Of a DNA stretch of 64,000 bases, positions 29,321-53,055 are shown piece by piece. Under the pieces are notes generated by a model, which saw only the letters and a list, made by a program, of their open reading frames with translations, made no database searches and was not told the origin of the DNA. Every line of letters begins with the position of its first letter. Position 1 is the first letter of the stretch. The position numbers were made by a program, and so were the translations under genes. Source of the DNA: Methanogenium organophilum (GTDB taxonomy: Archaea; Halobacteriota; Methanomicrobia; Methanomicrobiales; Methanomicrobiaceae); the NCBI RefSeq assembly GCF_026684035.1, contig NZ_CP113361.1, positions 124,001 to 188,000 on the forward strand, written 5' to 3'.

Positions 29321-29758
29321 TCAATCACCCTCATATTTCGAACAACGTAAAAAAACAACCGGTATGTCTTCTATACCGACCAATTTTCCGTTTTTGTTCC
29401 AGATAGAATAAATCCGATCCATGGTAGACTCATTCACTTCAGTATCTTTATTCCACCAGATCTCAATGTGTCCTTTATATGATAGCCCATAACCAACAAG
29501 AGGGCCACCTTGCAGGCCCATATATTCTAAATGTTCAGGATTTGACATGTTAATGACGTCCAACATAACTCTGGTATCATACCCTTCCTGCGAAAAATTT
29601 CCATAACTTTTGAGAAAAACGGCTGAATCAGGGACATCACCGTCTTCACTTTCTAAACCGAAGGGGTCTGTCATCCCGCATATAATCGCATATGAGAATA
29701 CGCCAAAAATGATGATTGTCAGGATTATTAATCCATATTTTTCAAATATCTCATTCAT
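29321..29758 (-). CDS. small membrane-anchored protein, copy A
   Basis: 145 residues: one N-terminal membrane segment (residues 8-28, LIILTIIIFGVFSYAIICG) then an outside domain with GLQGGPLVGYGLSYKGHIEI and IYSIWNKNGKLVGIEDIPVV. It follows a promoter cassette directly, without the signal-peptide gene found at other cassettes. Similar in layout to the partner genes at 30381, 41184, 43590 and 51827, so it may be an orphan partner. Function unknown. Confidence 0.75.
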   Translation of the reverse strand: MNEIFEKYGLIILTIIIFGVFSYAIICGMTDPFGLESEDGDVPDSAVFLKSYGNFSQEGYDTRVMLDVINMSNPEHLEYMGLQGGPLVGYGLSYKGHIEIWWNKDTEVNESTMDRIYSIWNKNGKLVGIEDIPVVFLRCSKYEGD

Positions 29759-29776
29759 ATCTTAACTCTTTTTCAA

Positions 29777-30380: not shown

Positions 30381-30884
30381 CTATGAAACCACCACCGTAA
30401 GCGATCCGCCTCCTTCCATCACACCCTCAAAGAGGTGATGATAGCGGAATACATACTCACCCTGCAATAGATCAGGAGCTGTTTTTATCGTGATGGTGGA
30501 ATTGTAGGTCTCATTCGGATACGCCATAAAGTCAGAGGGCTCGATACTGATATTCAGGCCCTTGGGCCAGGCGAGTTCCTCATCAGAGTAAACACTCTCA
30601 ATACGAGAGGGAATGGCATAATGAACCATCCCCGGTCCGTTCCTTTTCGTTTCTAGGGTAATGTATCCCTCCCATGTTTCACCTGCTCTCATATCAGCTG
30701 TTTCGGGATCAAGCAGTTTTGGCATGTTCATAAGTGCCACCCCGGGAGTAATATCCGGCGGCACCCAGGAATATTTTTCAGGACTTTCAGGAGGCTGTCC
30801 TTCAAAGTAGAATATCATCGCCACCACTGCTGCCAGTACTACCGCTAATCCAATCAGCAGACCGATTACATGATTTTTCTTCAT
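30381..30884 (-). CDS. membrane-anchored extracytoplasmic protein
   Basis: 167 residues with an N-terminal membrane anchor (residues 5-27, VIGLLIGLAVVLAAVVAMIF) and a beta-rich outside domain (AGETWEGYITLETKRNGPGM; GEYVFRYHHLFEGVMEGGGS), probably an Ig-like sandwich, with NET and NST sequons. It starts 40 bases after the stop of the secreted-protein gene at 30925 and is co-transcribed with it. I infer a partner role for that protein. Confidence 0.75.
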   Translation of the reverse strand: MKKNHVIGLLIGLAVVLAAVVAMIFYFEGQPPESPEKYSWVPPDITPGVALMNMPKLLDPETADMRAGETWEGYITLETKRNGPGMVHYAIPSRIESVYSDEELAWPKGLNISIEPSDFMAYPNETYNSTITIKTAPDLLQGEYVFRYHHLFEGVMEGGGSLTVVVS

Positions 30885-30924: not shown

Positions 30925-31995
30925 TTAGTTAGCCGTATGCAGCTTCACCCAATTATCGGATGGTCTCTCCACATTTAGTCCGGTTAATGGTGCATCATCA
31001 TCAATGTAAGGCTCCCACGTGATATCAACCGTTTGCAGGTTCAAATCTTTGAAACGCATATCATAGAACGTCGTATCACCAGGCACTTCCGAATCTGCAT
31101 CGACGTTATATCCTTCCAGTGCGGTGAATACTGCAACATCCTGACAACCAACACAATCTGAGAAACTCATTGTTGATGTTCCGGCGTCTAAGTCGTTAAA
31201 TATGATATTCCATTTGCTAATGCCAGAATTCCAGCCCAGTGTCCCTTTGATTGTATCGCCCACGTCTACATCGATGGGCTCACTGAAATATCCCTGCTGT
31301 TGGTACGGAACATACCAGGCAGCACCAGTCCAGTCACGATAGGCATGTCTGTTCCATTCCAAGACCGGTTGCACAATTCCATGCGCATTGGATGGTTCTA
31401 CGGCATTAAAAAGGAAAATTACAGAATCGGATTGTGATGACGGTGATGAAGGTGTTTCCCAATACGCAATGAACTGTGCAATTTCATTGACACTCCAATC
31501 ATAGGAAGATTCTATCCACCCGCCATAAGATGGTACTGGTAGTTTCTTCTCCGCATCTCTCTGATTATCGACGACCGTCAATATGCATGCTTCATCATTG
31601 TAGACTTTTGTAATATTTTCATTTGTATAAATATCAGATCCATTTGGAACCTGATGTACATGGGTTGCCGGAAGTAATCCAGCAGATGGCACTGGAACCT
31701 TTTCAGCATCTGCATCAATGGCAGAAATGATCTGCTTACCATCCTGTGTAAATACCCGTGTAATTCCATCAGATGAATGATGAATTATTGAGCCAACAGG
31801 TATTTGATGAAGGGACTCGCCTTTCATCGGACTTATTTCATTCTGGATCACTATTGGATCTAATGAATTATTTACCTCCAATTCCGGAAATTCCCAATTT
31901 ACTTCCCTTGCACTCACCGCCGGCACCATCACTACACTCACCAGCAACACTGCCAGGAGCACGGAAAGAGCCCGCATTCGAATTTTTGTTTTCAT
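30925..31995 (-). CDS. secreted protein with shared signal peptide and two 45-residue repeats
   Basis: 356 residues. The signal peptide MKTKIRMRALSVLLAVLLVS plus VVMVPAVSA is nearly the same as in the other cassette genes. Mature residues about 55-140 contain two tandem repeats (HQIPVGSIIHHSSDGITRVF and HQVPNGSDIYTNENITKVYN, each ending VPVPS or LPVPS). The C-terminal half (residues 150-356) is Trp-rich and probably a beta sandwich with a C-x2-C (DCVGCQD). Start ATG 31995 follows GGAGGAAAAAT. Exact function unknown; a lectin-like or eqolisin-like fold is only a guess. Confidence 0.8.
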   Translation of the reverse strand: MKTKIRMRALSVLLAVLLVSVVMVPAVSAREVNWEFPELEVNNSLDPIVIQNEISPMKGESLHQIPVGSIIHHSSDGITRVFTQDGKQIISAIDADAEKVPVPSAGLLPATHVHQVPNGSDIYTNENITKVYNDEACILTVVDNQRDAEKKLPVPSYGGWIESSYDWSVNEIAQFIAYWETPSSPSSQSDSVIFLFNAVEPSNAHGIVQPVLEWNRHAYRDWTGAAWYVPYQQQGYFSEPIDVDVGDTIKGTLGWNSGISKWNIIFNDLDAGTSTMSFSDCVGCQDVAVFTALEGYNVDADSEVPGDTTFYDMRFKDLNLQTVDITWEPYIDDDAPLTGLNVERPSDNWVKLHTAN

Positions 31996-33263: not shown

Positions 33264-34934
33264 TTACTGTTCCACAGAACTAGTTACTAGGTATCCACCG
33301 TCTGATGTCGGGTTCACGAAATAAATTCGGGATAAATTCTCCAGGTTCGTCGGGTATTCAATAATAAACACACTCTCTGATCCATCTATCTCACTGACCT
33401 TCACCTGTGTCCTGTTTCCGGCAAGAGATTCTGTTTCATATGTCAAATAAAGAGCGATTTCGTGGCTGAATGAATCTGGTCTGGGGGGTAGCAACTCCTC
33501 TTTGAGGATATTCCCCTCATGATCGAGTGTATATTTTTGCTCGCCTTCTCCGCGTAAATACACCTCAATGGTTCCATTATCAAGAGGTTTCATCGAATAG
33601 ACCACTCCGCTGTCCTTCTCGACGAATTTCTGTTTCCAGAGATAATTTCCCTGAAGATCAAGAGCCACGATCAGATCACCGCTCTCGTCGGGATCAGAGC
33701 ATGCTACATCGGGATCATAGCATCCCGCATAACAATTCACCAGCAGATTTCCCTCCGGTGATAGTGCTGCTCTCCTGCAATACGTGAACTCCTTCTCTTT
33801 TTTCTCCCACACAGTATTCCCCTCCCGGTCTGCATTGAGTATCCATCCATCAAATTTCTTCCAGCCTTCAGGACCTCTTTCGTTTGCTTCTCCGACTAAC
33901 AAATATCCGCCGTCTGGTAAGGATATGCTGTTAACAACACGAGTATCATGAGGATAATAGCGATGCCATAACTCATTTCCCTCATCATCCAGCCGGATAA
34001 CAAATCCATCACCCAATATCACTGTATATTCTCCTGCCGTCGGAAGGAGCATCTTGATAGTGACAGGATACGTTTCAGAATATGGAGAAGTTCCCCGGTG
34101 AATATCCCAGATCAGAGTACCGTTATGGTCGAATTTCATCACCCGCAGACTGCGATATTGTTCCCCGGAAAGCCAGAACATGCCGGCCATTATAAAGCCC
34201 CCGTCATGTGACGGACATACATCGAGATAAGATCCACCATACCCATTCACAGGGGTCTGCCATTCTGTGGTTCCGTTTGCATCGACTTTTGATATAAGGG
34301 AATCCCCGACTGGAACCTGAACCGCAACCGATGGAGATACAATGGATTGCAGACTGGAAAAAAACATAAAAGACAGGGATACTACCAGCGGTCCAAATAA
34401 AATCACGATGGCAAATGCCACCACCGCCAGAACCAATATTTGTCCAATTGTATGATCTTCTGATTTTTTTGTCCCGGCTGTCGTAAAAGCCGAACCGGTT
34501 CCAGGGGCACTCCTTACCGTATCATCATCCATTTTATAGAGTCTGACAACAATGAGATGACCAATCAGAATACCCGCAGGGACCAGTACCAACATTGCTA
34601 AAAAGGTGCTGAATAATTCTTGCCCACCACTCAGTTTCTGGATCGTGACTGCAGAATCTATAAACATAAACCCAAAAAAGAATATTGACATCCCGGCAAT
34701 AACCGCAATTTTCTGGGGATATCTGAACAGAAAATATGCGAGGGAGGATGCAATCAGACAATAGGTGAATAATAAAACACCGGCATAAAGACCATCCATC
34801 TTCATACCGAAAAACCAAGCTTCCCAGTTAATGACAAACACAAAAAAATAGATGACCGAGGTGAAAAGAAGAATTCCCAGAAGGCAATAGTGAAATAACT
34901 GATCAAGACTCTTTGCAACCCGCTTTACATTCAT
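33264..34934 (-). CDS. multi-pass membrane protein with extracytoplasmic beta-propeller-like domain
   Basis: 556 residues. The first about 210 carry five or six membrane segments (for example LLGILLFTSVIYFFVFVINW, GVLLFTYCLIASSLAYFLF, IAVIAGMSIFFFGFMFI, LVPAGILIGHLIVVRLY). After the last segment the chain has repeats of about 50 residues (DGGFIMAGMFW, VILGDGFVIRLDDEGNELW, DGGYLLVGEANER, DGGYLVTSSVEQ) typical of WD/PQQ-like propellers. It begins 28 bases after the stop of the secreted gene at 34962. Role unknown; as the second gene of a cassette operon it may bind the first product. Confidence 0.78.
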   Translation of the reverse strand: MNVKRVAKSLDQLFHYCLLGILLFTSVIYFFVFVINWEAWFFGMKMDGLYAGVLLFTYCLIASSLAYFLFRYPQKIAVIAGMSIFFFGFMFIDSAVTIQKLSGGQELFSTFLAMLVLVPAGILIGHLIVVRLYKMDDDTVRSAPGTGSAFTTAGTKKSEDHTIGQILVLAVVAFAIVILFGPLVVSLSFMFFSSLQSIVSPSVAVQVPVGDSLISKVDANGTTEWQTPVNGYGGSYLDVCPSHDGGFIMAGMFWLSGEQYRSLRVMKFDHNGTLIWDIHRGTSPYSETYPVTIKMLLPTAGEYTVILGDGFVIRLDDEGNELWHRYYPHDTRVVNSISLPDGGYLLVGEANERGPEGWKKFDGWILNADREGNTVWEKKEKEFTYCRRAALSPEGNLLVNCYAGCYDPDVACSDPDESGDLIVALDLQGNYLWKQKFVEKDSGVVYSMKPLDNGTIEVYLRGEGEQKYTLDHEGNILKEELLPPRPDSFSHEIALYLTYETESLAGNRTQVKVSEIDGSESVFIIEYPTNLENLSRIYFVNPTSDGGYLVTSSVEQ

Positions 34935-34961: not shown

Positions 34962-35921
34962 TTAGTAATAATAGTAGGTTTTTTTAGCCATGTTTGAATT
35001 CCGGTCATCCAGGCCCATGGCATGGTTCCATACGTTACTGATATAGATCGGTATACCCGTCGTATATACCCCTTCATACGTTCTCGCGCCATGTTGCCCA
35101 AGAACCGTGCCGTAGGAACATCCATTATCATAGTCATTGCCAAACTCAATATCCCGGTATCCAAGGGGATCTGGATCATAGATGAAGAATCCTTGGATAT
35201 CCACTAATGTCCCGTATACCAGCATCCGGAACTCATCATAGGCAGCATCATTAATAGGATGATCAGGGACATCTTCATCTCTGAAATGACATTGATAGAG
35301 AGTCTTTCCATCATATCCGTCGTTGAAAGATACAAAGAAGAGGTCGTTTTCGCCATTAACCCAATAAGGTATTCCAGCTCCATCAATGCCCGCACCTCCG
35401 TATACATCATCTGCAACCTGAACCAGGACAAGGGAGAGCGGTAAAGATAATATTTGGCTTTTCTCGCTCTGAGTTAATGTATCTCCCTGACTGGAGAGCA
35501 TGGGTTTAAAATCTTCATCTTTAACGCCCAATTTTTTCTTGAATTCTACCCAGGATACTCTTTCCATATGTTCCTGAACAATGATCTGTTTGAGATCTTC
35601 CCGTTCACTTACCGATAGTTTTTGTTCAATTTCTTTTTCAAGAGAATCAAGGATCTGATCCAGGTTTTTCTGATACTTCGTTACCAGTTTTTCTGAAAAA
35701 TCCTTGGAATTGAAGTCTGTCTTGGCAAATCCATCGCTTGTAACAATAGTTGCCATCGTACTTTCAATTTCAGCATTTATAGGTTCAAATAACCCGACAA
35801 TGTCTTGATTATTACCGATTACTTGCGTATTTTCTGCTGCACTTACCGGCACTATTATCATACTCACCAGCAGCATTGCCAGGAGTACGGAAAGTGCCCA
35901 CGTTCCTTTTTTCATTTTCAT
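34962..35921 (-). CDS. secreted protein with shared signal peptide, unknown domain
   Basis: 319 residues: signal peptide MKMKKGTWALSVLLAMLLVS plus MIIVPVSAA, then a helical, charged segment (residues 60-150, with ENLDQILDSLEKEIEQKL-like coiled potential), and a C-terminal domain rich in Gly, Asp and Tyr (VADDVYGGAGIDGAGIPYWV; IPIYISNVWNHAMGLDDRNS). Start ATG 35921 follows CGGAGGAAAAAC. The layout suggests a prodomain plus catalytic or binding domain, but I do not recognise a family. Confidence 0.75.
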   Translation of the reverse strand: MKMKKGTWALSVLLAMLLVSMIIVPVSAAENTQVIGNNQDIVGLFEPINAEIESTMATIVTSDGFAKTDFNSKDFSEKLVTKYQKNLDQILDSLEKEIEQKLSVSEREDLKQIIVQEHMERVSWVEFKKKLGVKDEDFKPMLSSQGDTLTQSEKSQILSLPLSLVLVQVADDVYGGAGIDGAGIPYWVNGENDLFFVSFNDGYDGKTLYQCHFRDEDVPDHPINDAAYDEFRMLVYGTLVDIQGFFIYDPDPLGYRDIEFGNDYDNGCSYGTVLGQHGARTYEGVYTTGIPIYISNVWNHAMGLDDRNSNMAKKTYYYY

Positions 35922-37378: not shown

Positions 37379-38080
37379 TCATCCATCCAATGGAACCCAG
37401 TTCCCATCCAGATATTGTGTGATGTGAGCATTTACCGGAATATCTCCGCGGATTTCAGGCGGAATACGCTCAAGAATGGTTACTCGAAATATATCCCCCA
37501 GAATGGAATGGTTGAGTCCCTCTGATACCGTTAATTTAAGGTCAACGACAATATCCGTTGCATTTGCATTCAGTGGTACGAGATCTTCCGGGAGGAAGAT
37601 TATCGATACATATTCTGATCTGTTCTCTGTTCCGGATTTCCACTCCTTTGACTCATCTGAGTTCTCACGAATGAGCGGATTAAGAGATTCATCACGGATA
37701 TCGGTCACCGTTAGTTTCCCAGGATCAAATTTTTTAAAGAAATCTGCGTCAATATCGGTAAGATCCCCCCCAATTGACTGGAATGCCAGCATTTTGCCAT
37801 ATGGGGTGACTACAATAACCGATTTCCAGTTGCCAAACTGTTGGTTTTGAAGTTCTTCTTCTGAAAATACCAGACTTCCATCTCTCATAGGCATTGGCAC
37901 AATAATATCTGTTATTAATCCGCCCTGATACTGGGATAGGCCCTCCGTTGAGATTTTATACTCATAAAATCCCGGGTTTGAGTTTATCCAGGAAGCTCCG
38001 AACAGGGGTAACAGTACCATAAATGCCGCGATAATCACAATCACCACAAAAATGATTTTGGTTATATTTTTTGATTCCAT
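37379..38080 (-). CDS. membrane-anchored extracytoplasmic protein, first gene of a unit
   Basis: 233 residues. N-terminal membrane anchor (residues 9-31, IIFVVIVIIAAFMVLLPLFG), then an outside domain (GLSQYQGGLITDIIVPMPMR; VVTPYGKMLAFQSIGGDL; VPLNANATDIVVDLKLTVSE; GDIPVNAHITQYLDGNWVPL). It is transcribed from a short promoter with a full inverted-repeat operator at 38148-38185 and TATA at 38130-38138, without the hairpin leader. Not of the shared-signal type. Function unknown. Confidence 0.75.
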   Translation of the reverse strand: MESKNITKIIFVVIVIIAAFMVLLPLFGASWINSNPGFYEYKISTEGLSQYQGGLITDIIVPMPMRDGSLVFSEEELQNQQFGNWKSVIVVTPYGKMLAFQSIGGDLTDIDADFFKKFDPGKLTVTDIRDESLNPLIRENSDESKEWKSGTENRSEYVSIIFLPEDLVPLNANATDIVVDLKLTVSEGLNHSILGDIFRVTILERIPPEIRGDIPVNAHITQYLDGNWVPLDG

Positions 38081-38209: not shown

Positions 38210-38560
38210 GTCGTAACCCCTGCAGGTGATACAAATAGACCTGGAGGAATTGTTCCTCTCAGTACATATTACACAATAATCCAGGGCGAGACTGACTGGT
38301 ATTCAACATATGTATCATCCGGGACAGATGATCCTGATGTTGATTTAAACTGGGGGTCTTTGCAGAACTCACTTACGATTACAATCATTGCACCGGATGC
38401 GACACTCGGCCCGTATTATGATGCCGATGACGGCGCAACAGATGGAAGAATCCACCTTCTCATTACCAAACCAGGAGGACTGGCTTCGGGAACATGGAAC
38501 TCCAGAGTATACGGATATAATGTGCAGGGTACGGAAGATTATACCTATTCCTGGAATTAA
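38210..38560 (+). pseudogene. small secreted protein gene lacking start and signal peptide
   Basis: The mature part of the protein encoded at 49323 is preserved in one open frame (VVTPAGDTNRPGGIVPLSTY; LNWGSLQNSLTITIIAPDAT; LGPYYDADDGATDGRIHLLI; ending YTYSWN), but the start codon and signal peptide are deleted; sequence before 38210 is promoter. The regulator gene follows 42 bases on. It is probably not made, unless from an unusual start. Confidence 0.7.
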
Positions 38561-38604
38561 GGCAAACCACAACCGTAATTGTCTATGAAGGTGAGAGGAA
38601 AGTG

Positions 38605-40791: not shown

Positions 40792-41184
40792 TTATGGTTG
40801 TTGTATCAATATTCCATAATATCCTCCTTTCCAGTAGAATGTCTTACTTGAATGCTCTTTCCGCATTTCGGAAGCTTTTCTTTCACTTACTGAGAGAGAA
40901 TTAACAATTTTTGTATCACGTTCGCCAAAATTTCCATCTCCGATAGGCGTTATATTATGAAACAGTTCTCCTAACTCAGGATATTTCTTAAAATCGTCTT
41001 CTGAAATGCTGGTAATTGTTCGATTTTCAAAATCAATCGACGAAGATCTTATTTCAACTAAATTAATAGTAGTTGTCTGAGGAAGGATGGGGCATAATAA
41101 GACAGGATAGTAAAAAATACATATAAATACCATCACAAACGCAACTAAAATTAAAAAAAATTTATTTCTATTTCCCATAAGCAC
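40792..41184 (-). CDS. small membrane-anchored protein after metalloprotease
   Basis: 130 residues. Membrane anchor at residues 8-30 (FFLILVAFVMVFICIFYYPV), then a short outside domain (ISEDDFKKYPELGELFHNIT; TFYWKGGYYGILIQQP). The last part resembles the C-terminal tail of the protein at 46435 (DADLKDFPTVNETI; YHGSYYLIDFCKS). It starts 7 bases after the protease stop. Likely a partner, for example an inhibitor or anchor for the protease; inference only. Confidence 0.72.
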   Translation of the reverse strand: MLMGNRNKFFLILVAFVMVFICIFYYPVLLCPILPQTTTINLVEIRSSSIDFENRTITSISEDDFKKYPELGELFHNITPIGDGNFGERDTKIVNSLSVSERKASEMRKEHSSKTFYWKGGYYGILIQQP

Positions 41185-41190
41185 TCCTTG

Positions 41191-42564
41191 TCAGACCAAT
41201 GAACTGATATCTCCTTTCACCAATTCAATAGCTCTTGCATTGTCGTGAGTCGAATCACCATGGTAATCCAGAGAAGAGTATTCCCACGTATGAAAATTGC
41301 TACCATAATAACAACTGTTCATAACAGTATATTTAGGAACTACTCCCTCAAACCAACAACATGCCTGATTGTATCCTCCGGTATTTTCATGGTCCGCATT
41401 GAAAATATGTCCAATTTCATGAATGATACAAAATACCCTTGCATGGTAAGATCCGTCGTATAAATCGATAGTATCAACATCGGCTACCATCTGTGACCAG
41501 GCATACCGGCAGTAGTCATGCCATCCGGGATGATCAGGATCGTCATAACAGGAATACCCCCATGATCCACCTTGTTCTGATCCACTTTTGTCATTTCCAC
41601 CCAAATATATCGCTATATCTGCGTTTTTTCCATCTAAATATGAAGGCTCAAATGTATCAAAAAATAATCCCAATGGATCAGATATCAACCTGTTATCTCC
41701 GGATAGAATACCACTTTTAGATGCATCATACCCTGCAACATTCAGGAATACCTGTATATCAGGTCTCTGATACTGGTACGCTGCCTGAGCCATATATTGC
41801 TGTGCGGTTGAAACCCAGTTTGATTCAAGGGCAATGAACTCATCATCCGTTGCTACAAGAACATATACAGTTGCCCACCCTCTTGTTAATTCCACTGATT
41901 CTGAACCAAAGGATGAAATATCTGTTTCAGATAAAGCAATTTCAGGGGGTAATAGTCTATCAGAATCAATTTTAAATGGTTTCTCCGGCTGCTTCATATC
42001 TTGTGAAGAATAGACAACATGCAAAGGCATATCGGTTTTCAGGGAATTTTCTCTGTTCTGAACGGGTGATATGAATAAGAACTCATCCTGAAGCTGAAGA
42101 GACCCGTGAACAAGATTTTTGTCAAAGGTAAATATTGCTATAGAATCATCGATTCCATCAATACTTCCTGAATAGGAATCAATCCCATCATCAATATCTT
42201 CGAAATCCATCCTTTCAAGATTCATATTATATTCTATACCATATATTGTCACCTTCAACAAATTTTTTTGATCGGTTTTCAGGTTTATTTCTCTGAATTG
42301 AACAATATCATATCTCTCAACAGTTGATGCTATGTTTAATGGTCCATATTCATTTGACAATGATTCCATAGTTTTATCTGAAGAAGACACGTTGGTTTGC
42401 AAATCATGAGTATAATCAGGTATTTCAAAAATTGCTCCAGAATTAATTTGATTATCCATACTCAGAATATTCCCATCAGCACTCACCGCTGGCACGACAA
42501 TAACACTTACCAGCAACAATACAAGGATCACAGAAAGCGCTCGCATTCCTTTTTTCATTTCCAT
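41191..42564 (-). CDS. secreted zinc metalloprotease (HEIGH type) with prodomain
   Basis: 457 residues. Shared signal peptide (MEMKKGMRALSVILVLLLVS plus VIVVPAVSADG), prodomain about residues 45-210 (VERYDIVQFREINLKTDQKN; VTIYGIEYNMNLERMDFEDI), then a catalytic domain with VLVATDDEFIALESNWVSTA and the zinc site IIHEIGHIFNADHE, fitting HExxHxxxxxH with a third His. A Met-turn candidate YTVMNSCYYG follows. It resembles reprolysin/M12B-like or other metzincin proteases. The protein at 47733 is a diverged relative. Exported and probably self-activating. Confidence 0.85.
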   Translation of the reverse strand: MEMKKGMRALSVILVLLLVSVIVVPAVSADGNILSMDNQINSGAIFEIPDYTHDLQTNVSSSDKTMESLSNEYGPLNIASTVERYDIVQFREINLKTDQKNLLKVTIYGIEYNMNLERMDFEDIDDGIDSYSGSIDGIDDSIAIFTFDKNLVHGSLQLQDEFLFISPVQNRENSLKTDMPLHVVYSSQDMKQPEKPFKIDSDRLLPPEIALSETDISSFGSESVELTRGWATVYVLVATDDEFIALESNWVSTAQQYMAQAAYQYQRPDIQVFLNVAGYDASKSGILSGDNRLISDPLGLFFDTFEPSYLDGKNADIAIYLGGNDKSGSEQGGSWGYSCYDDPDHPGWHDYCRYAWSQMVADVDTIDLYDGSYHARVFCIIHEIGHIFNADHENTGGYNQACCWFEGVVPKYTVMNSCYYGSNFHTWEYSSLDYHGDSTHDNARAIELVKGDISSLV

Positions 42565-42790
42565 GTTTTTTCTCCGTTTTTCATATCCACGGAGGCAAAC
42601 GGCGAAGCTTTCAAGTAATGGTAAGGTCAACTCAGTCATGCCTCCGGGCACGCGTGGGGCTCAACCATTCCTGATCGGTTCGGTGAGCCCCGTGCAACAT
42701 CTTCTTGATTCTACGTTCATGACTTTTTATTTCGATTTATTAACCGTTTATGGTCCAATCGTTTACACGTTAACAGATGTCTGGAAAATG
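42565..42790 (-). promoter_or_regulatory. repeated promoter/leader cassette 4
   Basis: Half-operator 42755-42768, TATA-like TTTATTAA 42736-42743 (start point expected near 42712). Leader stem 1: GGGGCTCA 42656-42663 with TGAGCCCC 42684-42691. Stem 2 pairs GGAGGCA with TGCCTCC, its second arm about 20 bases before the SD. Leader about 148 bases. Confidence 0.75.
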
Positions 42791-43140: not shown

Positions 43141-43590
43141 TTACGTGATGGTGACAGTAATATTTTCATTGAGATATTTAACCCAATCTGGAAATTGTTC
43201 TACTTTTTCAATAGACATTACCGTTTCATTGGGAAAATCGATAATTACCCGATAGGCCTCCCAGCCGGCAGTGTTGTTCCCTGTTGCAGGAGTGAAATGC
43301 GACACTGTCTGTGGAAAGGGTACCTTGATGAATATTGTCGATTCTCCTGTTTCATTGAATATGCCGCCCTCAAAAATGAATACATTTCCAGTCAAATTCT
43401 GAACTTCGCCATCCTTTCTAATTAATTCGGTTAGCTTATCCGTTGCAGACAACCTATCGACCATACCCAACTCACGTATGGTATCGCTATCATCAGTGCA
43501 TTTCATTTTTTCCATGGGAAAAAAGAGGAGGGTTGCAGTGGACAGGATAATAATTATCAACAGTATCCATATTCTCTTTGGGGATCGCAT
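43141..43590 (-). CDS. small membrane-anchored protein
   Basis: 149 residues: anchor at residues 7-25 (IWILLIIIILSTATLLFFPM), then an outside domain (MVDRLSATDKLTELIRKDGE; NVFIFEGGIFNETGESTIFI; AYRVIIDFPNETVMSIEKVE). It overlaps the upstream gene by one base and is the third gene of the unit starting with the chagasin-like inhibitor. General layout like 43590 and 51827. Function unknown. Confidence 0.72.
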   Translation of the reverse strand: MRSPKRIWILLIIIILSTATLLFFPMEKMKCTDDSDTIRELGMVDRLSATDKLTELIRKDGEVQNLTGNVFIFEGGIFNETGESTIFIKVPFPQTVSHFTPATGNNTAGWEAYRVIIDFPNETVMSIEKVEQFPDWVKYLNENITVTIT

Positions 43591-44084
43591 TATTCCTCCT
43601 TAAGATTATGATACGTACATATCGACCGATTCGTAAGATTCATCCTCATATCGACCGGGACACCGGGCGGATATCGGGGCGGGTATTCCCATGAGCGCTG
43701 AACAATTTGTTTCGAATCATTGATGAAGACGGAATACATCCCGTCATATGTGCCATACGGACGAGAAGTGCCTTTAAATAACCAAAATCGCACTTTAAGG
43801 AGTTCTTCAGGCTCATTTAATCCTGACTGCAGATGTGAAACGTAAATCTCAGTCTCGAACGAGTGGTTACCAATCGCATTGGCGACTTCTTCATCGCGGA
43901 GGGCAATCCGGACCAGTTCAATCTCTGATTCGTTACCCTGACAGTCAAGATCATTCATCCAACTATTGTCATCATCATGTCCCGTACCGGTTTCCTGCAC
44001 GCATCCACACGACAAAACCAAAGAAATGAGGAGGATGGTCAGGAGACCTCCCAAAACTCTGATGCCTCTCATTACAGAATTCAT
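43590..44084 (-). CDS. predicted lipoprotein, unknown function
   Basis: 164 residues. N-terminal hydrophobic segment ending in LVLSCGCVQ, a lipobox-like site, so probably lipid-anchored outside the cell. The domain has IELVRIALRDEEVANAIGNH and GMYSVFINDSKQIVQRSWEY followed by PPRYPPG. The order resembles the protein at 51827 (AYEVALHNPEVVELISNKSI; IVLINDSCMVYSAYETYPSY), so the two may be distant relatives. Second gene after the chagasin-like gene (28-base gap). Confidence 0.74.
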   Translation of the reverse strand: MNSVMRGIRVLGGLLTILLISLVLSCGCVQETGTGHDDDNSWMNDLDCQGNESEIELVRIALRDEEVANAIGNHSFETEIYVSHLQSGLNEPEELLKVRFWLFKGTSRPYGTYDGMYSVFINDSKQIVQRSWEYPPRYPPGVPVDMRMNLTNRSICTYHNLKEE

Positions 44085-44112: not shown

Positions 44113-44589
44113 CTATTCCACAACGATTGTCAAATTAAAGGTCGCTTCCTCACCTGAAATAAATTCAGGACGTCGATGAATTGCTGATATTGTCTGTACC
44201 CCCGTATTAACTGTGGTGACATTCCACTCACGCACACCTCTTATTCCAATGAATGTGGGTGAAGGATTTCCATCTTCATCATACCAGATAACACCCCCAT
44301 CTGATATACGGAGGCCAGGACTTGCAGTCATGTACCATTGATATCCGGTTCTTCGGTTTTCATTCAGACGGATTGTGAAAGACTCATGCAATTTTACGCA
44401 TATCGTAGAATTATTCTGCATTTCATCAACAGTCATATTCCCTCCGAAACCTGAACTCTCCAAACATTCAATTGATGTAACGTTTTCTTCCGGATACTGC
44501 TGGTCCAAACCAAGGCACCCAACTGCCAGAGTAACCATCATCACTGTCAGGAGCACAGAAAGTTCACGCATTCCTTTCTTCAGTTTCAT
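44113..44589 (-). CDS. chagasin-family (I42) protease inhibitor lipoprotein
   Basis: 158 residues. Signal MKLKKGMRELSVLLTVMMVT leads to a lipobox-like LAVGCLG. The mature part fits the I42 inhibitor fold: SFTIRLNENRRTGYQWYM (equivalent of the NPTTGY loop), central GVREWNV region, and ISAIHRRPEF (equivalent of the RPW loop). Known members inhibit papain-like cysteine proteases. It uses the same promoter cassette and signal-peptide type as the secreted proteases. The target here is unknown. Confidence 0.8.
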   Translation of the reverse strand: MKLKKGMRELSVLLTVMMVTLAVGCLGLDQQYPEENVTSIECLESSGFGGNMTVDEMQNNSTICVKLHESFTIRLNENRRTGYQWYMTASPGLRISDGGVIWYDEDGNPSPTFIGIRGVREWNVTTVNTGVQTISAIHRRPEFISGEEATFNLTIVVE

Positions 44590-44812
44590 GTTTTTCCTCC
44601 GGGGTTTTCCGGTCCCGGAGGAAAAACGGAGAAGTTTTCAGGTAATGGTAAGGCCAACGAAATCATGCCTCCGGGCACGCGTGGGGCTCAACCATTCCTG
44701 ATCGGTTCGGTGAACCCCGTGCAACACATTTTTGATACTACGTGCATGACTTTTGACTTCGCTTTATTAACTGTTTATGGTCCAATCGTTTACACGTTAA
44801 CAGATGTCTGGA
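44590..44812 (-). promoter_or_regulatory. repeated promoter/leader cassette 5
   Basis: Half-operator 44782-44795, TATA-like TTTATTAA just downstream, leader with stem-1 arms GGGGCTCA and TGAACCCC (one G-U pair in the transcript) and stem 2 reduced to GGAGG with CCTCC. SD CCGGAGGAAAAAC before ATG 44589. Confidence 0.72.
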
Positions 44813-45134: not shown

Positions 45135-45572
45135 TCAATCACCCTCATATTTCGAACAACGTAAAAAAACAACCGGTATGTCTTCTATACCGACCAATTT
45201 TCCGTTTTTGTTCCAGATAGAATAAATCCGATCCATGGTAGACTCATTCACTTCAGTATCTTTATTCCACCAGATCTCAATGTGTCCTTTATATGATAGC
45301 CCATAACCAACAAGAGGGCCACCTTGCAGGCCCATATATTCTACATGTTCAGGATTTGACATGTTAATGACGTCCAACATAACTCTGGTATCATACCCTT
45401 CCTGCGAAAAATTTCCATAACTTTTGAGAAAAACGGCTGAATCAGGGACATCACCGTCTTCACTTTCTAAACCGGAGGGGTCTGTCATCCCGCATATAAT
45501 CGCATATGAGAATACGCCAAAAATGATGATTGTCAGGATTATTAATCCATATTTTTCAAATATCTCATTCAT
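45135..45572 (-). CDS. small membrane-anchored protein, copy B
   Basis: 145 residues, differing from the protein at 29321 at two positions (DPSGL for DPFGL and EHVEY for EHLEY). Same anchor and outside domain. It is expressed from cassette 6 directly, with no signal-peptide gene before it. Confidence 0.75.
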   Translation of the reverse strand: MNEIFEKYGLIILTIIIFGVFSYAIICGMTDPSGLESEDGDVPDSAVFLKSYGNFSQEGYDTRVMLDVINMSNPEHVEYMGLQGGPLVGYGLSYKGHIEIWWNKDTEVNESTMDRIYSIWNKNGKLVGIEDIPVVFLRCSKYEGD

Positions 45573-45589
45573 ATCTTAACTCTTTTTCA

Positions 45590-45745
45590 AGAAATGATAA
45601 TGCCAATACAGCCCTGCCTCCGGGCACGCGTGGGGCTTAACCATTCCTGATCTGTTCGTTGAGCCCCGTGCAACACCTTTTTGATGCTACGTGCATGACT
45701 TTTGACGTCGGTTTATTAACTTTTTTATGGTCCAATCGTTTACAT
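45590..45745 (-). promoter_or_regulatory. repeated promoter/leader cassette 6
   Basis: Half-operator-like CCAATCGTTTACAT at 45732-45745, TATA-like TTTATTAA downstream, leader stem-1 arms GGGGCTTA and TGAGCCCC. The leader is shortened and joins the 145-residue gene. Confidence 0.68.
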
Positions 45746-46434: not shown

Positions 46435-47304
46435 CTAACTTTTGCAGAAATCAATCAGGTAGTAACTCCCATGATACTCCGCGATTTTCCCCCGGTAATT
46501 CTTCTCAACAATACGCTCCACTTCATCCACAGGTATCGACAACTCCTGAATGTCGGTCTGGATCGTTTCATTCACAGTAGGGAAGTCTTTGAGATCAGCA
46601 TCGGTGAGCCTGACGACCTCGTATCCGACGTTCATGAACTCGACTTCGGTGCCATTTGCAGGAATCCCGTATTCTTCGCCATCCCCCCTACTGATGTTTA
46701 AGATTGTGGTGTAGTAGCCGCTTAACATCGCGGGCGGGCCCTCCGCTACAACATCAGCAGAAGAATAGGCGTAATGGAGGACCTTCTCCGGATATATGGT
46801 ATCATTTAATCTTGTACTCTCCACCGAGTACTCGGTGGCACCGGTGACGAACCGGCCGACAAGGACATCATCGTTGAGGGTCAGAACCACATCACCACCC
46901 CCGGCAAGGGTGCCGGTGAAGGAGCAGATTCCCGCACTGCGGACTTCGGCGTCAAGCAGCGATTCCTGCAGATCCGCCACGTAGGGCTGTCCTGCAAGAT
47001 ACACGGTCAGCAACTCCCCCCGAAGCAGCTGGTCCCGGATTGCCGGGGTGTCAAAGACCATGAGATCATATTTCCGGACTGACGACGGGATTCCGAGGTC
47101 ATCTAAACCTTCATCCGGGACATCCCTCTTCTCCGTCAGCAGATCGATGTGAACCATTGCTCTCTCATCCGGTGCGATCCCGGTATCACCGACCCCTGTG
47201 TCGGGTTCAAAAACCACGAGACCAGCCACAAACGCGGTAATCACACTTACCAAGAGCAACGCTAGGAGCACAAAAAGCACGCTCATTTCTTTTTTCAGTT
47301 TCAT
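46435..47304 (-). CDS. secreted stand-alone protease prodomain-like protein
   Basis: 289 residues with signal/anchor MKLKKEMSVLFVLLALLLVS. Residues about 45-190 align with the prodomain of the protease at 47733: here YDLMVFDTPAIRDQLLRGEL, LTVYLAGQPYVADLQESLLD and GICSFTGTLAGGGDVVLTLN; there YDLVVFDIQRIREILLSGDT and HSFTGSLIGVEDSEVILTFD. The zinc-protease domain is absent; the C-terminus (DADLKDFPTVNETIQTDIQE; YRGKIAEYHGSYYLIDFCKS) is different. It could act as an inhibitor or chaperone of the related proteases. SD AAGGAAAAGT. Confidence 0.78.
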   Translation of the reverse strand: MKLKKEMSVLFVLLALLLVSVITAFVAGLVVFEPDTGVGDTGIAPDERAMVHIDLLTEKRDVPDEGLDDLGIPSSVRKYDLMVFDTPAIRDQLLRGELLTVYLAGQPYVADLQESLLDAEVRSAGICSFTGTLAGGGDVVLTLNDDVLVGRFVTGATEYSVESTRLNDTIYPEKVLHYAYSSADVVAEGPPAMLSGYYTTILNISRGDGEEYGIPANGTEVEFMNVGYEVVRLTDADLKDFPTVNETIQTDIQELSIPVDEVERIVEKNYRGKIAEYHGSYYLIDFCKS

Positions 47305-47732: not shown

Positions 47733-49049
47733 TCAACAATAAGAGGCAACAACACCCTTCGTTTCAGAAATTCTTCGCTCATTGTCATGATTGGCATCAC
47801 CATAATATCCATCATCTGCCGAAAATTCTAACCAATTACTTTTCATGAAATAACCCCACATAACAGTCTGCCAATAGCTATAATGCTCATAAAACCTATA
47901 TGGTCGGTTGTATGTCTCTGTCTGTCCAGTTGCTGGATCATGATCCGCATCAAAAACATGCCCAATTTCGTGTAGAGTTACAACCGCCCTGTCCTTGTGC
48001 ACAGCGTCGTATGTAGAGGGATCATCTGCCATTTGTGTCCATGCATGCCTGTAGAGAGTATTGTGATCATACCCCCCTGAAGATCCAACTCCATTCGATG
48101 TAGAGTCAAAACCGCCTAAATACAACCCAAAATCTGCAGATTTCGAATTTAGATACGATTTTGGATAATATGCAGCAAATGTTGAGAGCGGAGAACCTTG
48201 AATCTGTGGATCGTCGGAGAGCAGTTGTGCCTTCGAAGTATCATAAATTGGTACAAGGTTCACTCCGATAGTATTCATTTCATAGTTACAGTCTGTGATG
48301 ATATTTGCCGCTTTTACCTGCCAGTCAGGCTCATCTGTCATCCACTTACTATCAGTAGCAACAAGAACTCTGACGGTGACAGTTGCATCTGAATAAGCCT
48401 GTTCTTCCAGTATCTTTTTCAATGCGTATTCTGTTTCGTTGATTACGTGAGTTGAAGGGAGATAGGAATCAATGAGGATCGTGTCGCCTTCAGGGACAAC
48501 GTCCTTTGATGAGTACACATATTGCAAGAACGCATTTGTGGATTTCGGATCTTTCATCGATGTGCTTTCAATGTAATATTCAGTTTTGTTAATAGCGATT
48601 CTGCTCAGCAGAACTCTGTCATCAAACGTAAGGATCACCTCGCTATCCTCAACACCGATGAGGCTTCCAGTGAAGGAATGGATCCCAATAGCAAGAGCTT
48701 CTGTATCGGTCAATATTTCTTGTATATCCATCACATAGGGCTGCCCTTCAACATATACTGTCAATGTATCACCACTAAGTAGAATTTCTCGAATTCTTTG
48801 TATGTCAAAGACTACTAAATCATAGTTCTTTATCGAAGAAGGGATTTTGGCAATCGTCCTCTCATCGGTGATTCTTATCTCTGTCATGTCTCCAAAGTGG
48901 ACAAGAGCCTTCTTGCCAACGGATTCACTGTGCATCTGTTCATTTCCAATTTCAGAGTCTAAAGCACTCACCGCCGGCACCACAATAACACTCACAAACA
49001 GCAACGCCAACAGCACAGAAAGTGCTCGCATTTCAATTTTTGGTTTCAT
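47733..49049 (-). CDS. secreted zinc metalloprotease (HEIGH type) with prodomain
   Basis: 438 residues. Shared signal peptide MKPKIEMRALSVLLALLFVS plus VIVVPAVSA, prodomain about residues 45-200, catalytic domain with VRVLVATDSKWMTDEPDWQV and the zinc site VVTLHEIGHVFDADHDPATG. A Met-turn candidate QTVMWGYF follows. It is related to the protease at 41191 throughout, and its prodomain to 46435. ATG 49049; no small partner gene follows directly. Secreted, probably made as an inactive proform. Confidence 0.85.
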   Translation of the reverse strand: MKPKIEMRALSVLLALLFVSVIVVPAVSALDSEIGNEQMHSESVGKKALVHFGDMTEIRITDERTIAKIPSSIKNYDLVVFDIQRIREILLSGDTLTVYVEGQPYVMDIQEILTDTEALAIGIHSFTGSLIGVEDSEVILTFDDRVLLSRIAINKTEYYIESTSMKDPKSTNAFLQYVYSSKDVVPEGDTILIDSYLPSTHVINETEYALKKILEEQAYSDATVTVRVLVATDSKWMTDEPDWQVKAANIITDCNYEMNTIGVNLVPIYDTSKAQLLSDDPQIQGSPLSTFAAYYPKSYLNSKSADFGLYLGGFDSTSNGVGSSGGYDHNTLYRHAWTQMADDPSTYDAVHKDRAVVTLHEIGHVFDADHDPATGQTETYNRPYRFYEHYSYWQTVMWGYFMKSNWLEFSADDGYYGDANHDNERRISETKGVVASYC

Positions 49050-49235
49050 ACTTTTTTCTCCATTTTTCATATCTCAGGAGGCAAAACAGCGAAACTTCCA
49101 AGTAATGGTAAGGCCAACACGGCCCTGCCTCCGGGCACGCGGGGGGCTCAACCATTCCTGATCTGTTCGGCGAGCCCCGTGCAACACCTTTTTGATGCTG
49201 TGTGCATGACTTTTGACGTTTATATATTAGCTTTT
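49050..49235 (-). promoter_or_regulatory. repeated promoter/leader cassette 8
   Basis: A TATA box of best quality in the set (TATATAAA on the minus strand at about 49219-49227), then a leader with stem-1 arms GGGGCTCA and CGAGCCCC (a G-U pair in the transcript) and stem 2 GGAGGCA with TGCCTCC. Drives the protease at 49049 from the full operator of locus B. Confidence 0.75.
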
Positions 49236-49241
49236 TATGGC

Positions 49242-49322: not shown

Positions 49323-49769
49323 ATGAAAACTATGAGAATTGCCGCTGTGACACTGATTGTTGCGGCGCTTGTTATATCGGCAGCCGCTGCGCAGGAAATA
49401 GAACAGAATAATGGATACATAGTAACCCCTGCAGGTGATACAGATAAATTCGGAGGAATTTTGCCCCTCAGTACATATTACACGATTACCCAGGGCGAGA
49501 CCGACCGGTATTCAACATATGTATCATTCGGGACAAATGACCTTGGCGTTGATTTAAACTGGGGGTCTGTGCAGAACTCACTTGCGCTTACAATCATTGC
49601 ACCGGATGCGACACTCGGCCCGTATTATGATGCCGATGACGGCATAACAGATGGAAGAGTTCACCTTCTCATTGCCAAATCAGGAGGGCTGGCTGCGGGA
49701 ACATGGAACTCCAATATATATGGCCAGAATGTGCAGGGGACGGAATATTATACATTTTCCTGGAATTAA
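49323..49769 (+). CDS. small secreted protein (intact member of repeated family)
   Basis: 148 residues: signal peptide MKTMRIAAVTLIVAALVISA then AAAQEIEQNNGYIVTPAGDT, mature domain of about 123 residues, beta-rich (ILPLSTYYTITQGETDRYST; LALTIIAPDATLGPYYDADD; ending YYTFSWN), resembling a small jelly-roll/peptidase-C-terminal-like domain. It precedes the regulator gene by 44 bases and is probably co-transcribed. At least five decayed copies face other cassettes. It could be the external signal or a co-factor of the regulator. Confidence 0.8.
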   Translation: MKTMRIAAVTLIVAALVISAAAAQEIEQNNGYIVTPAGDTDKFGGILPLSTYYTITQGETDRYSTYVSFGTNDLGVDLNWGSVQNSLALTIIAPDATLGPYYDADDGITDGRVHLLIAKSGGLAAGTWNSNIYGQNVQGTEYYTFSWN

Positions 49770-49813
49770 GGTAAAACACAACCATAATCATCCATGAAGA
49801 TGAGAGGAAAATG

Positions 49814-50662
49814 ATGGCAGTAAAACGGCCACTCACTCTCACATTTATCCTTATCCTCTTCATTGTATACCTCATCGGTCCGGCAACCGCAGCACCGGGG
49901 GGGTATATTGTCAAACCGGCCCCCGAGACGGACCCGGATGAAGAGGTACACGAATTTACACCCATCTCCTTTTGGGAACTATCTCCCCGTGCAATGCTCA
50001 TCGACATTGCAATCTGTATTTCCCCCGCTCTGATATTCCCGGTTGAACTTCTGTTTGCGGTTAAATTATGGATATATCTGGGATATCGAAAGGTTGCGAA
50101 ATACAACGTGCTCGATAACAATATCCGTTCAGAAATGTTTGAACACATCTGCAATAATCCGGGCATTACATTTTCTGCTCTTGCCCGTGAATGCAATATC
50201 GGGAAGGGAACGCAACAATATCACCTCAAAGTGCTAAAAAGGGAACATAAAATAGTCTCAGTTAAGAAAAAGGGTCAAACCGGATTTTTTGAGAATAATG
50301 AAAAATATGAGGAATTGCAGCAGACCATACTGATGCAGCTCAGGAGTGATACGGTGCGCCATATCTATGAAATCCTTATTCGTCATCCCAACATATCACG
50401 CAAAGAGCTCTCCCGGTGCCTTGGCCGATCCGGATCTGCCGTGACATGGCAAATGGATCGGCTCTGTGCTGAAGGCACCGTTTCCGCCACGAAATCCGGG
50501 AAATACACCCGTTACCTGCTCAATCCCAAAGCAAAAGAAATTCTCCGGGATTACCTGCCTGACTATCCGGCTGCGGATGCGACGGGTCAGGCACAAAAGG
50601 AATCATCTGAGCTGCGGTCTGCGGTTCTGGTTACATCGGGTGAAATCCCCTCATCAGATTAA
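49814..50662 (+). CDS. membrane-tethered regulator with two winged-helix domains, copy B
   Basis: 282 residues beginning MAVKRPLTLTFILILFIVYL. Outside loop GGYIVKPAPETDPDEEVHEF, second membrane segment SPALIFPVELLFAVKLWIYL, then HTH 1 (ICNNPGITFSALARECNIGK) and HTH 2 (LIRHPNISRKELSRCLGRSG with SAVTWQMDRL). Same organisation as 38605. HTH 2 recognition residues differ slightly (SGSAVTW for SGSSVTW; RCLGRS for RYLGIS), so DNA preference may have shifted. SD GATGAGAGGAAA. Confidence 0.86.
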   Translation: MAVKRPLTLTFILILFIVYLIGPATAAPGGYIVKPAPETDPDEEVHEFTPISFWELSPRAMLIDIAICISPALIFPVELLFAVKLWIYLGYRKVAKYNVLDNNIRSEMFEHICNNPGITFSALARECNIGKGTQQYHLKVLKREHKIVSVKKKGQTGFFENNEKYEELQQTILMQLRSDTVRHIYEILIRHPNISRKELSRCLGRSGSAVTWQMDRLCAEGTVSATKSGKYTRYLLNPKAKEILRDYLPDYPAADATGQAQKESSELRSAVLVTSGEIPSSD

Positions 50663-51434: not shown

Positions 51435-51827
51435 CTAACCCGGAATATATGACGGATATGTTTCATAAGCGGAATACACCATACACGAATCGTTAATCAG
51501 AACAATGATCTTCGAACCAGTCATACGATCATCCGGATTTGGATCCTGTGGCTGGAAAACAATCTGAGTATAATTCATATCCCGGTAATTATCATACAAT
51601 TTTGATACTGTTACAGTTCGGATGCTTTTATTGCTAATTAATTCAACAACTTCGGGATTATGCAGGGCGACCTCATATGCTATCTGGAATGTAATCTCTT
51701 CCGGGCATTCAGTTGGCCAATCTGTTTTGGGTAAATCATTATACGGTACCATGAAATATCCGACCAACATCCCACAAAAAAAAGTGATAATCAGAAAACC
51801 AGCAACAATCTTTTTCATGCTATCCAT
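51435..51827 (-). CDS. small membrane-anchored protein after secreted protein
   Basis: 130 residues: MDSMKKIVAGFLIITFFCGM opens a membrane anchor (residues 6-25), then FQIAYEVALHNPEVVELISN and GSKIIVLINDSCMVYSAYET ending YPSYIPG. It overlaps the end of the secreted gene at 51815 by 13 bases, so coupling is tight. Similar order to the lipoprotein at 43590. Inferred partner of the 51815 product. Confidence 0.75.
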   Translation of the reverse strand: MDSMKKIVAGFLIITFFCGMLVGYFMVPYNDLPKTDWPTECPEEITFQIAYEVALHNPEVVELISNKSIRTVTVSKLYDNYRDMNYTQIVFQPQDPNPDDRMTGSKIIVLINDSCMVYSAYETYPSYIPG

Positions 51828-52825
51828 GATTTCACCTGATATGCATGTGACCACCATGGTACATTATTCAATAATTCGGGAGCTCCTGCTGAGCAACTCG
51901 TCAAATGGGGAACCGTACTATCCGGAAGATTTTCGTTCCACCATAAAGAATTGCAATTATAGCTGCTGTATACATATGAATCACAAAAATATGACTCTGA
52001 GACAGGAGTGAATAAATTACCATTTAATGCAAAATATTCATGGTTTTCATCTAAATCACCATAACAAAACGGCAGGTGACCTGTTCGAATAACGGTACCT
52101 TGCCATGAAATCATATATGGATACCCTTCAGATGTTTGTGAAGTACTGATATATATCTCAAAATTATAATTCCTCATGTCACTTGTGAAGTTTTGATGAG
52201 CAATATATTTTTCATCTTCCGGCATAGTGCTATCATAGGTGAAAACTACGAATTCTGAAGGATTTCCTCCAACCGCAGGAGATTGCTTTGTCACCCCCAC
52301 CTCTATCCAGGTCGCTATTCCACTGATATCCTGACCAATATGAGATGTCAAATACTGATATGCTGTTCCACCTGATGACACTTCCATATTTCCGAGGTGA
52401 TTGTTTCCGTTAACTCCGTTATAGTGATAATTATTTATTCTGATTCCCGAATCTGCCTGTTCATGTTGAATCATTGAAAAAACATCTACACATTCTTTTT
52501 TCCCCAGAGAACGATATTTATGTAACTGACTAAGTATCTCAGCAATTTTTTCGCTCTTTTTTAATTCCATTCCATCCAAGTACGTTACCGTCGGCATTTT
52601 TTCTATCATTTGGGAAATTTTTTCATCACTCATTCTTTTTCCTTCTTCATCATAAATGAATGAACTCCTCTCTAATGTTACATTAATATCTATGATATCG
52701 CCCGCGGATGAGGGGTTTTCGATAAAATTGTCCACATCAGCACTTACCATCGGAACAAAGATCGCTCCGAAAAGCACTACTACCATCAACAGGCTCAAGG
52801 CCCGCATTTCGGCTTTTGTTTTCAT
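51815..52825 (-). CDS. secreted protein with shared signal peptide, unknown domain
   Basis: 336 residues. Signal MKTKAEMRALSLLMVVVLFG plus AIFVPMVSA. Residues 40-130 are charged and helical (prodomain-like), and the C-terminal 200 residues are beta-rich with many Tyr, Ser and Trp and several Cys (NHLGNMEVSSGGTAYQYLTS; GVTKQSPAVGGNPSEFVVFT; SYVYSSYNCNSLWWNENLPD). No catalytic motif recognised. A 115-base fragment of this gene is found at 40619-40733. Confidence 0.78.
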   Translation of the reverse strand: MKTKAEMRALSLLMVVVLFGAIFVPMVSADVDNFIENPSSAGDIIDINVTLERSSFIYDEEGKRMSDEKISQMIEKMPTVTYLDGMELKKSEKIAEILSQLHKYRSLGKKECVDVFSMIQHEQADSGIRINNYHYNGVNGNNHLGNMEVSSGGTAYQYLTSHIGQDISGIATWIEVGVTKQSPAVGGNPSEFVVFTYDSTMPEDEKYIAHQNFTSDMRNYNFEIYISTSQTSEGYPYMISWQGTVIRTGHLPFCYGDLDENHEYFALNGNLFTPVSESYFCDSYVYSSYNCNSLWWNENLPDSTVPHLTSCSAGAPELLNNVPWWSHAYQVKSWIA

Positions 52826-53055
52826 TTTTTCCTCCATTATCACATTCCAGAAGGCAAAACGGCGAAGCTTTCACGTAATGATAATGCCAACACAATCCTG
52901 CCTCCGGGCACGCGTGGGGTTCAACCATTTCTGATCTGTTCGGTGAGCCCCGTGCAATATCTTCCTGATGCTACGTGCATGACTTTTGACGTCGCTTAAT
53001 TAACGTCTTATGGCCCAATCGTTTACACGTTAGCATATGTCTGGAAAACTGAACA
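52826..53055 (-). promoter_or_regulatory. repeated promoter/leader cassette 9
   Basis: Half-operator 53015-53028, TATA-like CTTAATTAA downstream, leader stem-1 arms GGGGTTCA and TGAGCCCC; stem 2 weakened (GGAGGCA with TGCCTTC). SD TGGAGGAAAAA before ATG 52825. Confidence 0.7.

What the first reader, a model, noticed from the sequence alone, without database searches (positions are those of the whole stretch)
51435..52825. Exported protein plus small membrane-anchored partner, repeated with unrelated sequences
Seen: pairs with short gaps or overlaps: 52825-51815 with 51827-51435; 42564-41191 with 41184-40792; 44589-44113 with 44084-43590 and 43590-43141; 35921-34962 with 34934-33264; 31995-30925 with 30884-30381. 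Each second protein is membrane- or lipid-anchored with an outside domain, and most are unlike each other. Two cassette copies (29.3 and 45.1 kb) have only a second-type gene. This is the layout of toxin and immunity pairs, with orphan immunity genes. Alternatives are anchoring subunits or protease inhibitors.
Basis: inference. Interest (0 to 1): 0.7.

Follow-up and report, generated by a model that had tools for sequence, protein, structure and literature searches.

The report
Archaeal secreted enzyme–immunity cassettes
A methane-producing archaeon carries an exchangeable set of secreted enzymes (several clearly protease-like), each made together with its own membrane-anchored partner that probably blocks it, plus many spare partners without an enzyme; this is how microbes build weapons with matching antidotes, and this version appears undescribed.

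Summary
The pairs are real and general. In the window, eight copies of a ~140-250 nt 5' module lie in a low-GC island (28-54 kb). Across 28 genomes of the family (Methanomicrobiaceae; the window is Methanogenium-like), 86 intact genes share the same signal peptide and then diverge into 25 unrelated clusters. 66 of them (77%) are followed within 110 nt by a membrane- or lipid-anchored protein, against 13 of 135 control genes. First and partner families are linked: 72 of 124 locus pairs sharing a first family also share a partner family (shuffle mean 7, maximum 19). Several first families keep catalytic motifs: M12 metallopeptidases, C39-like cysteine peptidases, a transglutaminase-like and a zinc phospholipase C-like protein. 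The named pair is a neprosin-like beta-sandwich with a PepSY-like (protease-propeptide fold) anchored partner. Partners often occur alone (8/15, 12/15 and 15/26 in three families), in tandem arrays together with M12 prodomains lacking a catalytic domain. Orphans in arrays argue for immunity and against anchoring subunits. Best reading: secreted effectors, mainly peptidases, with anchored cognate inhibitors acting as immunity. Toxicity, binding and targets are untested.

The parts
51815..52825 (-). First gene F2 of the named pair: shared signal peptide, prodomain-like region, neprosin-like beta-sandwich
   Evidence: fold match to neprosin Z 9.5-8.6 on a low-confidence model (pLDDT 48)
51435..51827 (-). 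Partner S3 of the named pair: N-terminal TM plus PepSY-like outside domain
41191..42564 (-). First gene F0: exported M12-like metallopeptidase with prodomain, HEIGHIFNADH motif
   Evidence: (Reprolysin_5 8.1e-5, below cut-off)
40792..41184 (-). Partner S0 of the M12 peptidase: TM plus small outside domain
47733..49049 (-). Second M12-like metallopeptidase with the shared leader
   Evidence: (Reprolysin_5 9e-9, above cut-off)
46435..47304 (-). M12 prodomain without catalytic domain joined to an S0 partner-type domain, with a long hydrophobic N-terminus; candidate inhibitor of the preceding peptidase
   Evidence: (S0 profile E 6.4e-6)
44113..44589 (-). Chagasin (I42) inhibitor with the shared leader turned into a lipoprotein signal
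   Evidence: (3.1e-14, above cut-off)
43590..44084 (-). Orphan S3 partner (lipoprotein); close relatives follow F2 first genes in G027 and G008
43141..43590 (-). Further TM-anchored protein in the chagasin operon
37379..38080 (-). Orphan S5 partner; 90% identical relative follows a phospholipase C-like first gene in G011
34962..35921 (-). First gene F5 with shared leader, fold unknown
33264..34934 (-). Partner of F5: several TM segments plus propeller-like outside domain; same pairing in four genomes
30925..31995 (-). First gene F4 with shared leader; invariant Gln and Glu suggest an eqolisin-like enzyme (by eye only)
30381..30884 (-). Partner S7 of F4: TM plus Ig-like outside domain; relatives occur in orphan arrays
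45135..45572 (-). Orphan anchored 145-aa gene directly behind a 5' module
29321..29758 (-). Orphan anchored 145-aa gene directly behind a 5' module, nearly identical to the copy at 45.1 kb
52869..53009 (-). 5' module core of the named cassette (other copies: 49096-49236, 45585-45725, 44636-44776, 42609-42749, 35967-36107, 32045-32185, 29772-29912)

Best explanation
These are exchangeable secreted effector-immunity cassettes. A shared 5' module and signal peptide drive expression and Sec export of many unrelated effectors, several of them peptidases with their own prodomains (motifs shown; activity inferred). The overlapping or adjacent second gene makes a cognate partner held on the outer face of the cytoplasmic membrane (anchor predicted), where it binds and blocks the mature effector (inferred from the PepSY-like fold and from FTP, chagasin and prodomain-only relatives), so that the producer and its kin are spared. 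Partner genes kept without their effector, often in arrays, would protect against effectors of competing relatives (inferred).
For: Pairing 66/86 against 13/135 controls; family-to-family linkage 72/124 against shuffle mean 7, max 19; same 13-nt overlap of the named pair in five genomes; catalytic motifs kept in F0 (12/12 HExGHxxxxxH) and F1 (Cys and His 11/11, Gln and Asp 10/11), transglutaminase core, C39 1.3e-9; PepSY-like partner fold, FTP motif in another partner, chagasin in a cassette, M12 prodomains without catalytic domain; orphans 8/15, 12/15, 15/26, in mixed arrays.
Against: No toxicity or binding data. 19 of 66 partners have three or more TM segments and do not look like simple inhibitors. 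F2 lacks a conserved second catalytic Glu, so it may not be a peptidase. PepSY match is at middling Z (7.0) and no Pfam PepSY match in S3. Some orphans may follow first genes that lack this leader.
Confidence: 0.68

Rival explanations
1. Surface enzyme complexes: the second protein is an anchoring or activating subunit that holds the exported enzyme at the membrane for envelope processing or nutrient use, with no antagonism.
For: Tight adjacency and overlap, membrane anchors; multi-TM partners for part of the families; partner families track enzyme families.
Against: Partners persist without enzymes in mixed arrays; PepSY, FTP, chagasin and prodomain-only relatives are inhibitor-type; partners vary more than enzymes.
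Confidence: 0.13
2. Variable surface or signalling proteins: first genes are ligands or coat proteins and second genes are receptors, shuffled for self-recognition or to escape viruses.
For: Mosaic, hypervariable island beside a membrane-bound HTH regulator plus small secreted protein in many loci; VARTIG precedent (PMC8416519).
Against: Several first families keep full catalytic motifs, which ligands do not need; several partners are of inhibitor type.
Confidence: 0.1
3. Digestive enzymes with self-protection: the secreted hydrolases feed the cell from dead neighbours, and the anchored partners only protect the producer.
For: Hydrolase motifs and inhibitor-like partners.
Against: Orphan partner arrays without enzymes point to exposure to foreign enzymes; methanogens of this group are not known to live on protein (general knowledge).
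Confidence: 0.09

Closest known systems
Polymorphic toxin-immunity systems (bacterial; archaeal ones surveyed by Makarova et al. 2019 mBio, not held here)
   Same: Shared N-terminal export part with variable bodies, cognate gene directly downstream, orphan partner arrays
   Different: No large delivery protein; small secreted enzymes, several peptidase-like, instead of the mostly nuclease toxins; anchored outside-facing partners
VARTIG modules of Thermococcales (PMC8416519)
   Same: Hypervariable archaeal islands; first gene followed by a distinct set of membrane proteins
   Different: First gene there is a large Ig-domain protein and no toxin was found; here first genes are many unrelated enzymes with one leader
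Protease propeptide/PepSY inhibitors (vibriolysin propeptide, YpeB)
   Same: Predicted fold of the S3 partner and role as protease regulator
   Different: Here a separate, membrane-anchored gene next to an unrelated enzyme
Archaeal peptidoglycan hydrolases that kill bacteria (PMC12352652)
   Same: Secreted archaeal enzymes with antagonistic function
   Different: The paper's main text does not mention immunity; different enzymes and targets

Membership tests
Polymorphic toxin-immunity system | Shared N-terminal export part with variable remainder | tested here: met
   112 leader matches, 25 first-protein clusters
Polymorphic toxin-immunity system | Cognate gene directly downstream | tested here: met
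   66/86, linkage 72/124
Polymorphic toxin-immunity system | Orphan immunity genes and arrays | tested here: met
Polymorphic toxin-immunity system | Large delivery protein or domain (RHS, CdiA, DUF4157 and the like) | tested here: not met
   First proteins are 150-460 aa; no such domain in Pfam scans of representatives
Polymorphic toxin-immunity system | Growth inhibition relieved by the partner | not testable with these tools
   needs experiment
M12 metzincin peptidase (42564-41191, 49049-47733) | HExxHxxxxxH zinc motif | tested here: met
   12 of 12 full-length members; Pfam above cut-off only for 49049-47733
Chagasin I42 (44589-44113) | Match to the family model | tested here: met
   PF09394 3.1e-14, above cut-off
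Neprosin (52825-51815) | Neprosin beta-sandwich fold | tested here: inconclusive
   Top five VIA matches Z 9.5-8.6 but model pLDDT 48
Neprosin (52825-51815) | Two catalytic glutamates (E188, E297 in neprosin, PMC9343461) | tested here: not met
   First Glu (E175) invariant; the position matched by eye to the second varies E/G/N/S
Neprosin (52825-51815) | Match to PF03080 | tested here: not met
   No match in the own genome
PepSY/propeptide inhibitor (51827-51435) | PepSY-like fold | tested here: inconclusive
   Vibriolysin propeptide Z 7.0, YpeB 6.9, YpmB 6.6; middling values
PepSY/propeptide inhibitor (51827-51435) | Match to PepSY or FTP Pfam models | tested here: not met
   None; FTP present in another partner family
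VARTIG module | Large upstream protein with Ig domains | tested here: not met
   No Ig-domain match above cut-off in first genes

The most novel reading that the evidence does not exclude
An undescribed antagonism system of methanogens: one exchangeable promoter-plus-signal-peptide module arms many secreted enzymes, and self-protection comes from anchored, trans-acting, propeptide-like inhibitors that are collected as orphans in immunity arrays.
Probability: 0.55. Interest if true: 0.85.

Novelty: new variant of a known kind. Interest (0 to 1): 0.74.

Why it matters
Weapons of methanogens are hardly known. If right, Methanomicrobiales fight close relatives with secreted peptidases and other hydrolases, and the orphan partner arrays give a readable record of which effectors each strain resists. 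It also gives testable functions to dozens of unannotated protein families, and suggests that protease propeptide folds have been reused as immunity proteins.

Tried and rejected
Anchoring subunits: disfavoured by orphan arrays. Known antiviral defence: no PADLOC match. Structured RNA in the 5' module: no Rfam family on it and no covariation support (covariation term +0.83), so treated as a duplicated DNA element. Pfam, NCBIfam and PDB sequence searches gave nothing useful for F2, F4, S0 and S3. A profile of F2 was too variable for a collection scan; a single-sequence scan gave five loci and the genus name through the M. cariaci record. A Cys-rich, halocin C8-like C-terminus in a first gene of the same genome (G000:2403125) was seen by eye but had no NCBIfam match, so it is kept only as a lead. 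The eqolisin-like reading of 31995-30925 rests on an invariant Gln and Glu by eye only. PF03080 search negative. One search was a throw-away peptide query of no use. Families absent from the VIA lists were not used as evidence. The S0 profile A8 contained one doubtful row (L115); the fusion match was rechecked without it.

Full report
Where it is. The window is G000:C1:124001-188000 of a 2.65 Mb one-contig genome. A same-genus genome, G008, matches the contig length and hit position of Methanogenium cariaci JCM 10550 (NZ_BBBG01000005.1), so the host is a Methanogenium-like methanogen of the Methanomicrobiaceae. The stretch 28-54 kb has 40-47% GC against 55-60% in the 5-10 kb on either side, and starts next to a tRNA-Gly at 27793-27865.

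The observation. All listed ORFs are present as stated. Eight copies of a 141-nt core, most of them 89-93% identical (one 61% in an ungapped comparison), precede the genes, and alignments show the module running up to the Shine-Dalgarno region and, in most copies, into the signal-peptide codons. After the signal peptide the proteins are unrelated, apart from the M12 group. Two modules (29.8, 45.6 kb) are followed only by an anchored 145-aa gene.

Generality. A 30-residue profile of the leader (A2) gave 112 matches in 16 of 28 family genomes, 8 of 9 genera, and matches in 41 of 150 genomes sampled from the order. I read what follows each leader. Of 86 intact first genes, 69 have a same-strand ORF within 110 nt and 66 of these have an N-terminal membrane or lipid anchor. 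Genes more than 5 kb from any leader in the same stretches give 13 of 135. Several of the 20 exceptions are broken genes, or partners whose start my simple caller misplaced. First proteins fall into 25 clusters and partners into 36. Of 124 pairs of loci that share a first cluster, 72 share a partner cluster; 2000 shuffles gave a mean of 7 and a maximum of 19. Related genomes are not independent, so the linkage figure is descriptive.

The named pair. 52825-51815 has relatives at 67, 66, 46, 42 and 41% in five other genomes. In G014, G015, G027 and G010 the partner follows with the same 13-nt overlap as in the window. Partners are less conserved (40, 37, 21, 20%). In G015 a second partner copy sits behind only the last 74 codons of a first gene. 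In G027 and G008 the partner is the close relative of the window's 44084-43590 lipoprotein, which in the window stands behind a chagasin instead. So 44084-43590 looks like a partner that has lost its first gene.

What the first genes are. F0 (window 42564-41191 and 49049-47733) are M12-like metallopeptidases with a prodomain; 12 of 12 full-length members keep HExGHxxxxxH. F1 are C39-like cysteine peptidases: Cys and His 11/11, Gln and Asp 10/11, Pfam 1.3e-9 in one member. F9 has a transglutaminase core (3.9e-13). F14 and a relative are DUF6345-like (4.2e-39 in one). F7 keeps a Trp-His-Asp-His-His-Asp-His-His-Glu order with spacing like zinc phospholipase C (the comparison is from memory), with two weak PDB hits to phospholipase C (E 0.56 and 0.64). 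F2 (52825-51815) modelled poorly (pLDDT 48), yet its beta-sandwich matches neprosin best (Foldseek probability 1.00 for the top hit; Z 9.5-8.6). Its first Glu is invariant; the position I match to the second varies, so glutamic peptidase activity is not claimed. F4 and F5 have no assigned fold.

What the partners are. The S3 partner 51827-51435 modelled fairly well (pLDDT 77). Its best matches are the propeptide of vibriolysin (Z 7.0), YpeB (6.9) and YpmB (6.6), all PepSY-type, with the fungalysin propeptide at 5.5. The Z values are middling and amine oxidase domains score almost as high. Independently, the partner of a DUF6345 gene carries an FTP propeptide motif above the Pfam cut-off, and another partner is PepSY-like (weak). 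A chagasin inhibitor sits in a cassette with the leader turned into a lipobox-like signal. M12 prodomains without catalytic domain occur as separate, often anchored genes in several genomes; in the window one is joined to an S0 partner domain (46435-47304; S0 profile E 6.4e-6, rechecked). Four lines thus point to inhibition of peptidases. 19 of the 66 partners have three or more TM segments and do not fit this simple picture.

Orphans. Profile searches found 15 S3, 15 S5 and 26 S0 genes at the cut-offs used; 8, 12 and 15 have no intact leader-bearing first gene upstream. They collect in arrays of mixed partner types without first genes: L184 in G017 (S12, M12 prodomain, S0, S3-type, S7, S35, S4), L192 in G024, L190 in G015, L185 in G027, L186 in the own genome, and L061 in G022, where one M12 gene remains. 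The window's 38080-37379 is such an orphan; its 90% identical relative follows a phospholipase C-like first gene in G011. A subunit needed to anchor or activate an enzyme has no reason to persist in this way; an immunity protein has.

Mechanism proposed. Shown by sequence: shared module and leader, effector motifs, anchors, pairing, linkage, orphans. Inferred: export by Sec, activation outside by prodomain removal, binding and inhibition by the anchored partner at the outer membrane face, harm to relatives that lack the partner, and protection by orphans. Because orphan partners lie in the same family of organisms as the effectors, the likely targets are close relatives.

Comparison. It works like a polymorphic toxin-immunity system but lacks the large delivery proteins of that class and uses small secreted enzymes; it is not filed as a member. 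VARTIG of Thermococcales (PMC8416519) is the nearest archaeal analogue in layout. PepSY-type proteins have been suggested as protease inhibitors in archaea (PMC6393860). In the held library I found no description of this system; the key survey (Makarova 2019) was not held, so prior mention cannot be excluded.

Noticed in passing
38602-39453 and 49811-50662 (+), with 49323-49769 (+): Membrane-bound double-HTH regulator, with a small secreted protein gene just upstream (a remnant at 38360-38560), beside the cassettes; homologs of both occur in many other cassette loci. A candidate sensor-regulator pair for the cassettes.
   Followed up: partly
28275-28865, 36548-37138, 39866-40456 (-), remnant 32626-32868: Multi-TM protein repeated three times plus a remnant, with homologs in G013 and G027; possibly another orphan partner family.
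   Followed up: partly
27793-27865 (+): tRNA-Gly (gcc) at the left edge of the low-GC island, a common integration site.
   Followed up: no
L116:3326-4084 (G000:2403125): First gene with the same leader and a Cys-rich hydrophobic C-terminus resembling halocin C8 by eye; no NCBIfam match. Followed by a LolA/DUF2092-like lipoprotein.
   Followed up: partly
G024:C1:646882, 660516, 2857533, 2863028, 2865729: Short leader-bearing ORFs of 42-46 aa lie about 0.5 kb upstream of full leader-bearing genes; remnants or secreted micropeptides.
   Followed up: no
L142:23-961 (Nitrospirae MAG contig JACUUX010000109.1): An F2 relative (36%) on a contig labelled Nitrospirae; probably a misbinned archaeal contig, or a transfer.
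   Followed up: no
29772-53009 (5' modules): The 5' module holds a conserved inverted repeat (GCACGGGGCTC ... GAGCCCCACGCGTGC) that the consensus fold did not use; it may be a regulator site or a recombination hotspot.
   Followed up: partly
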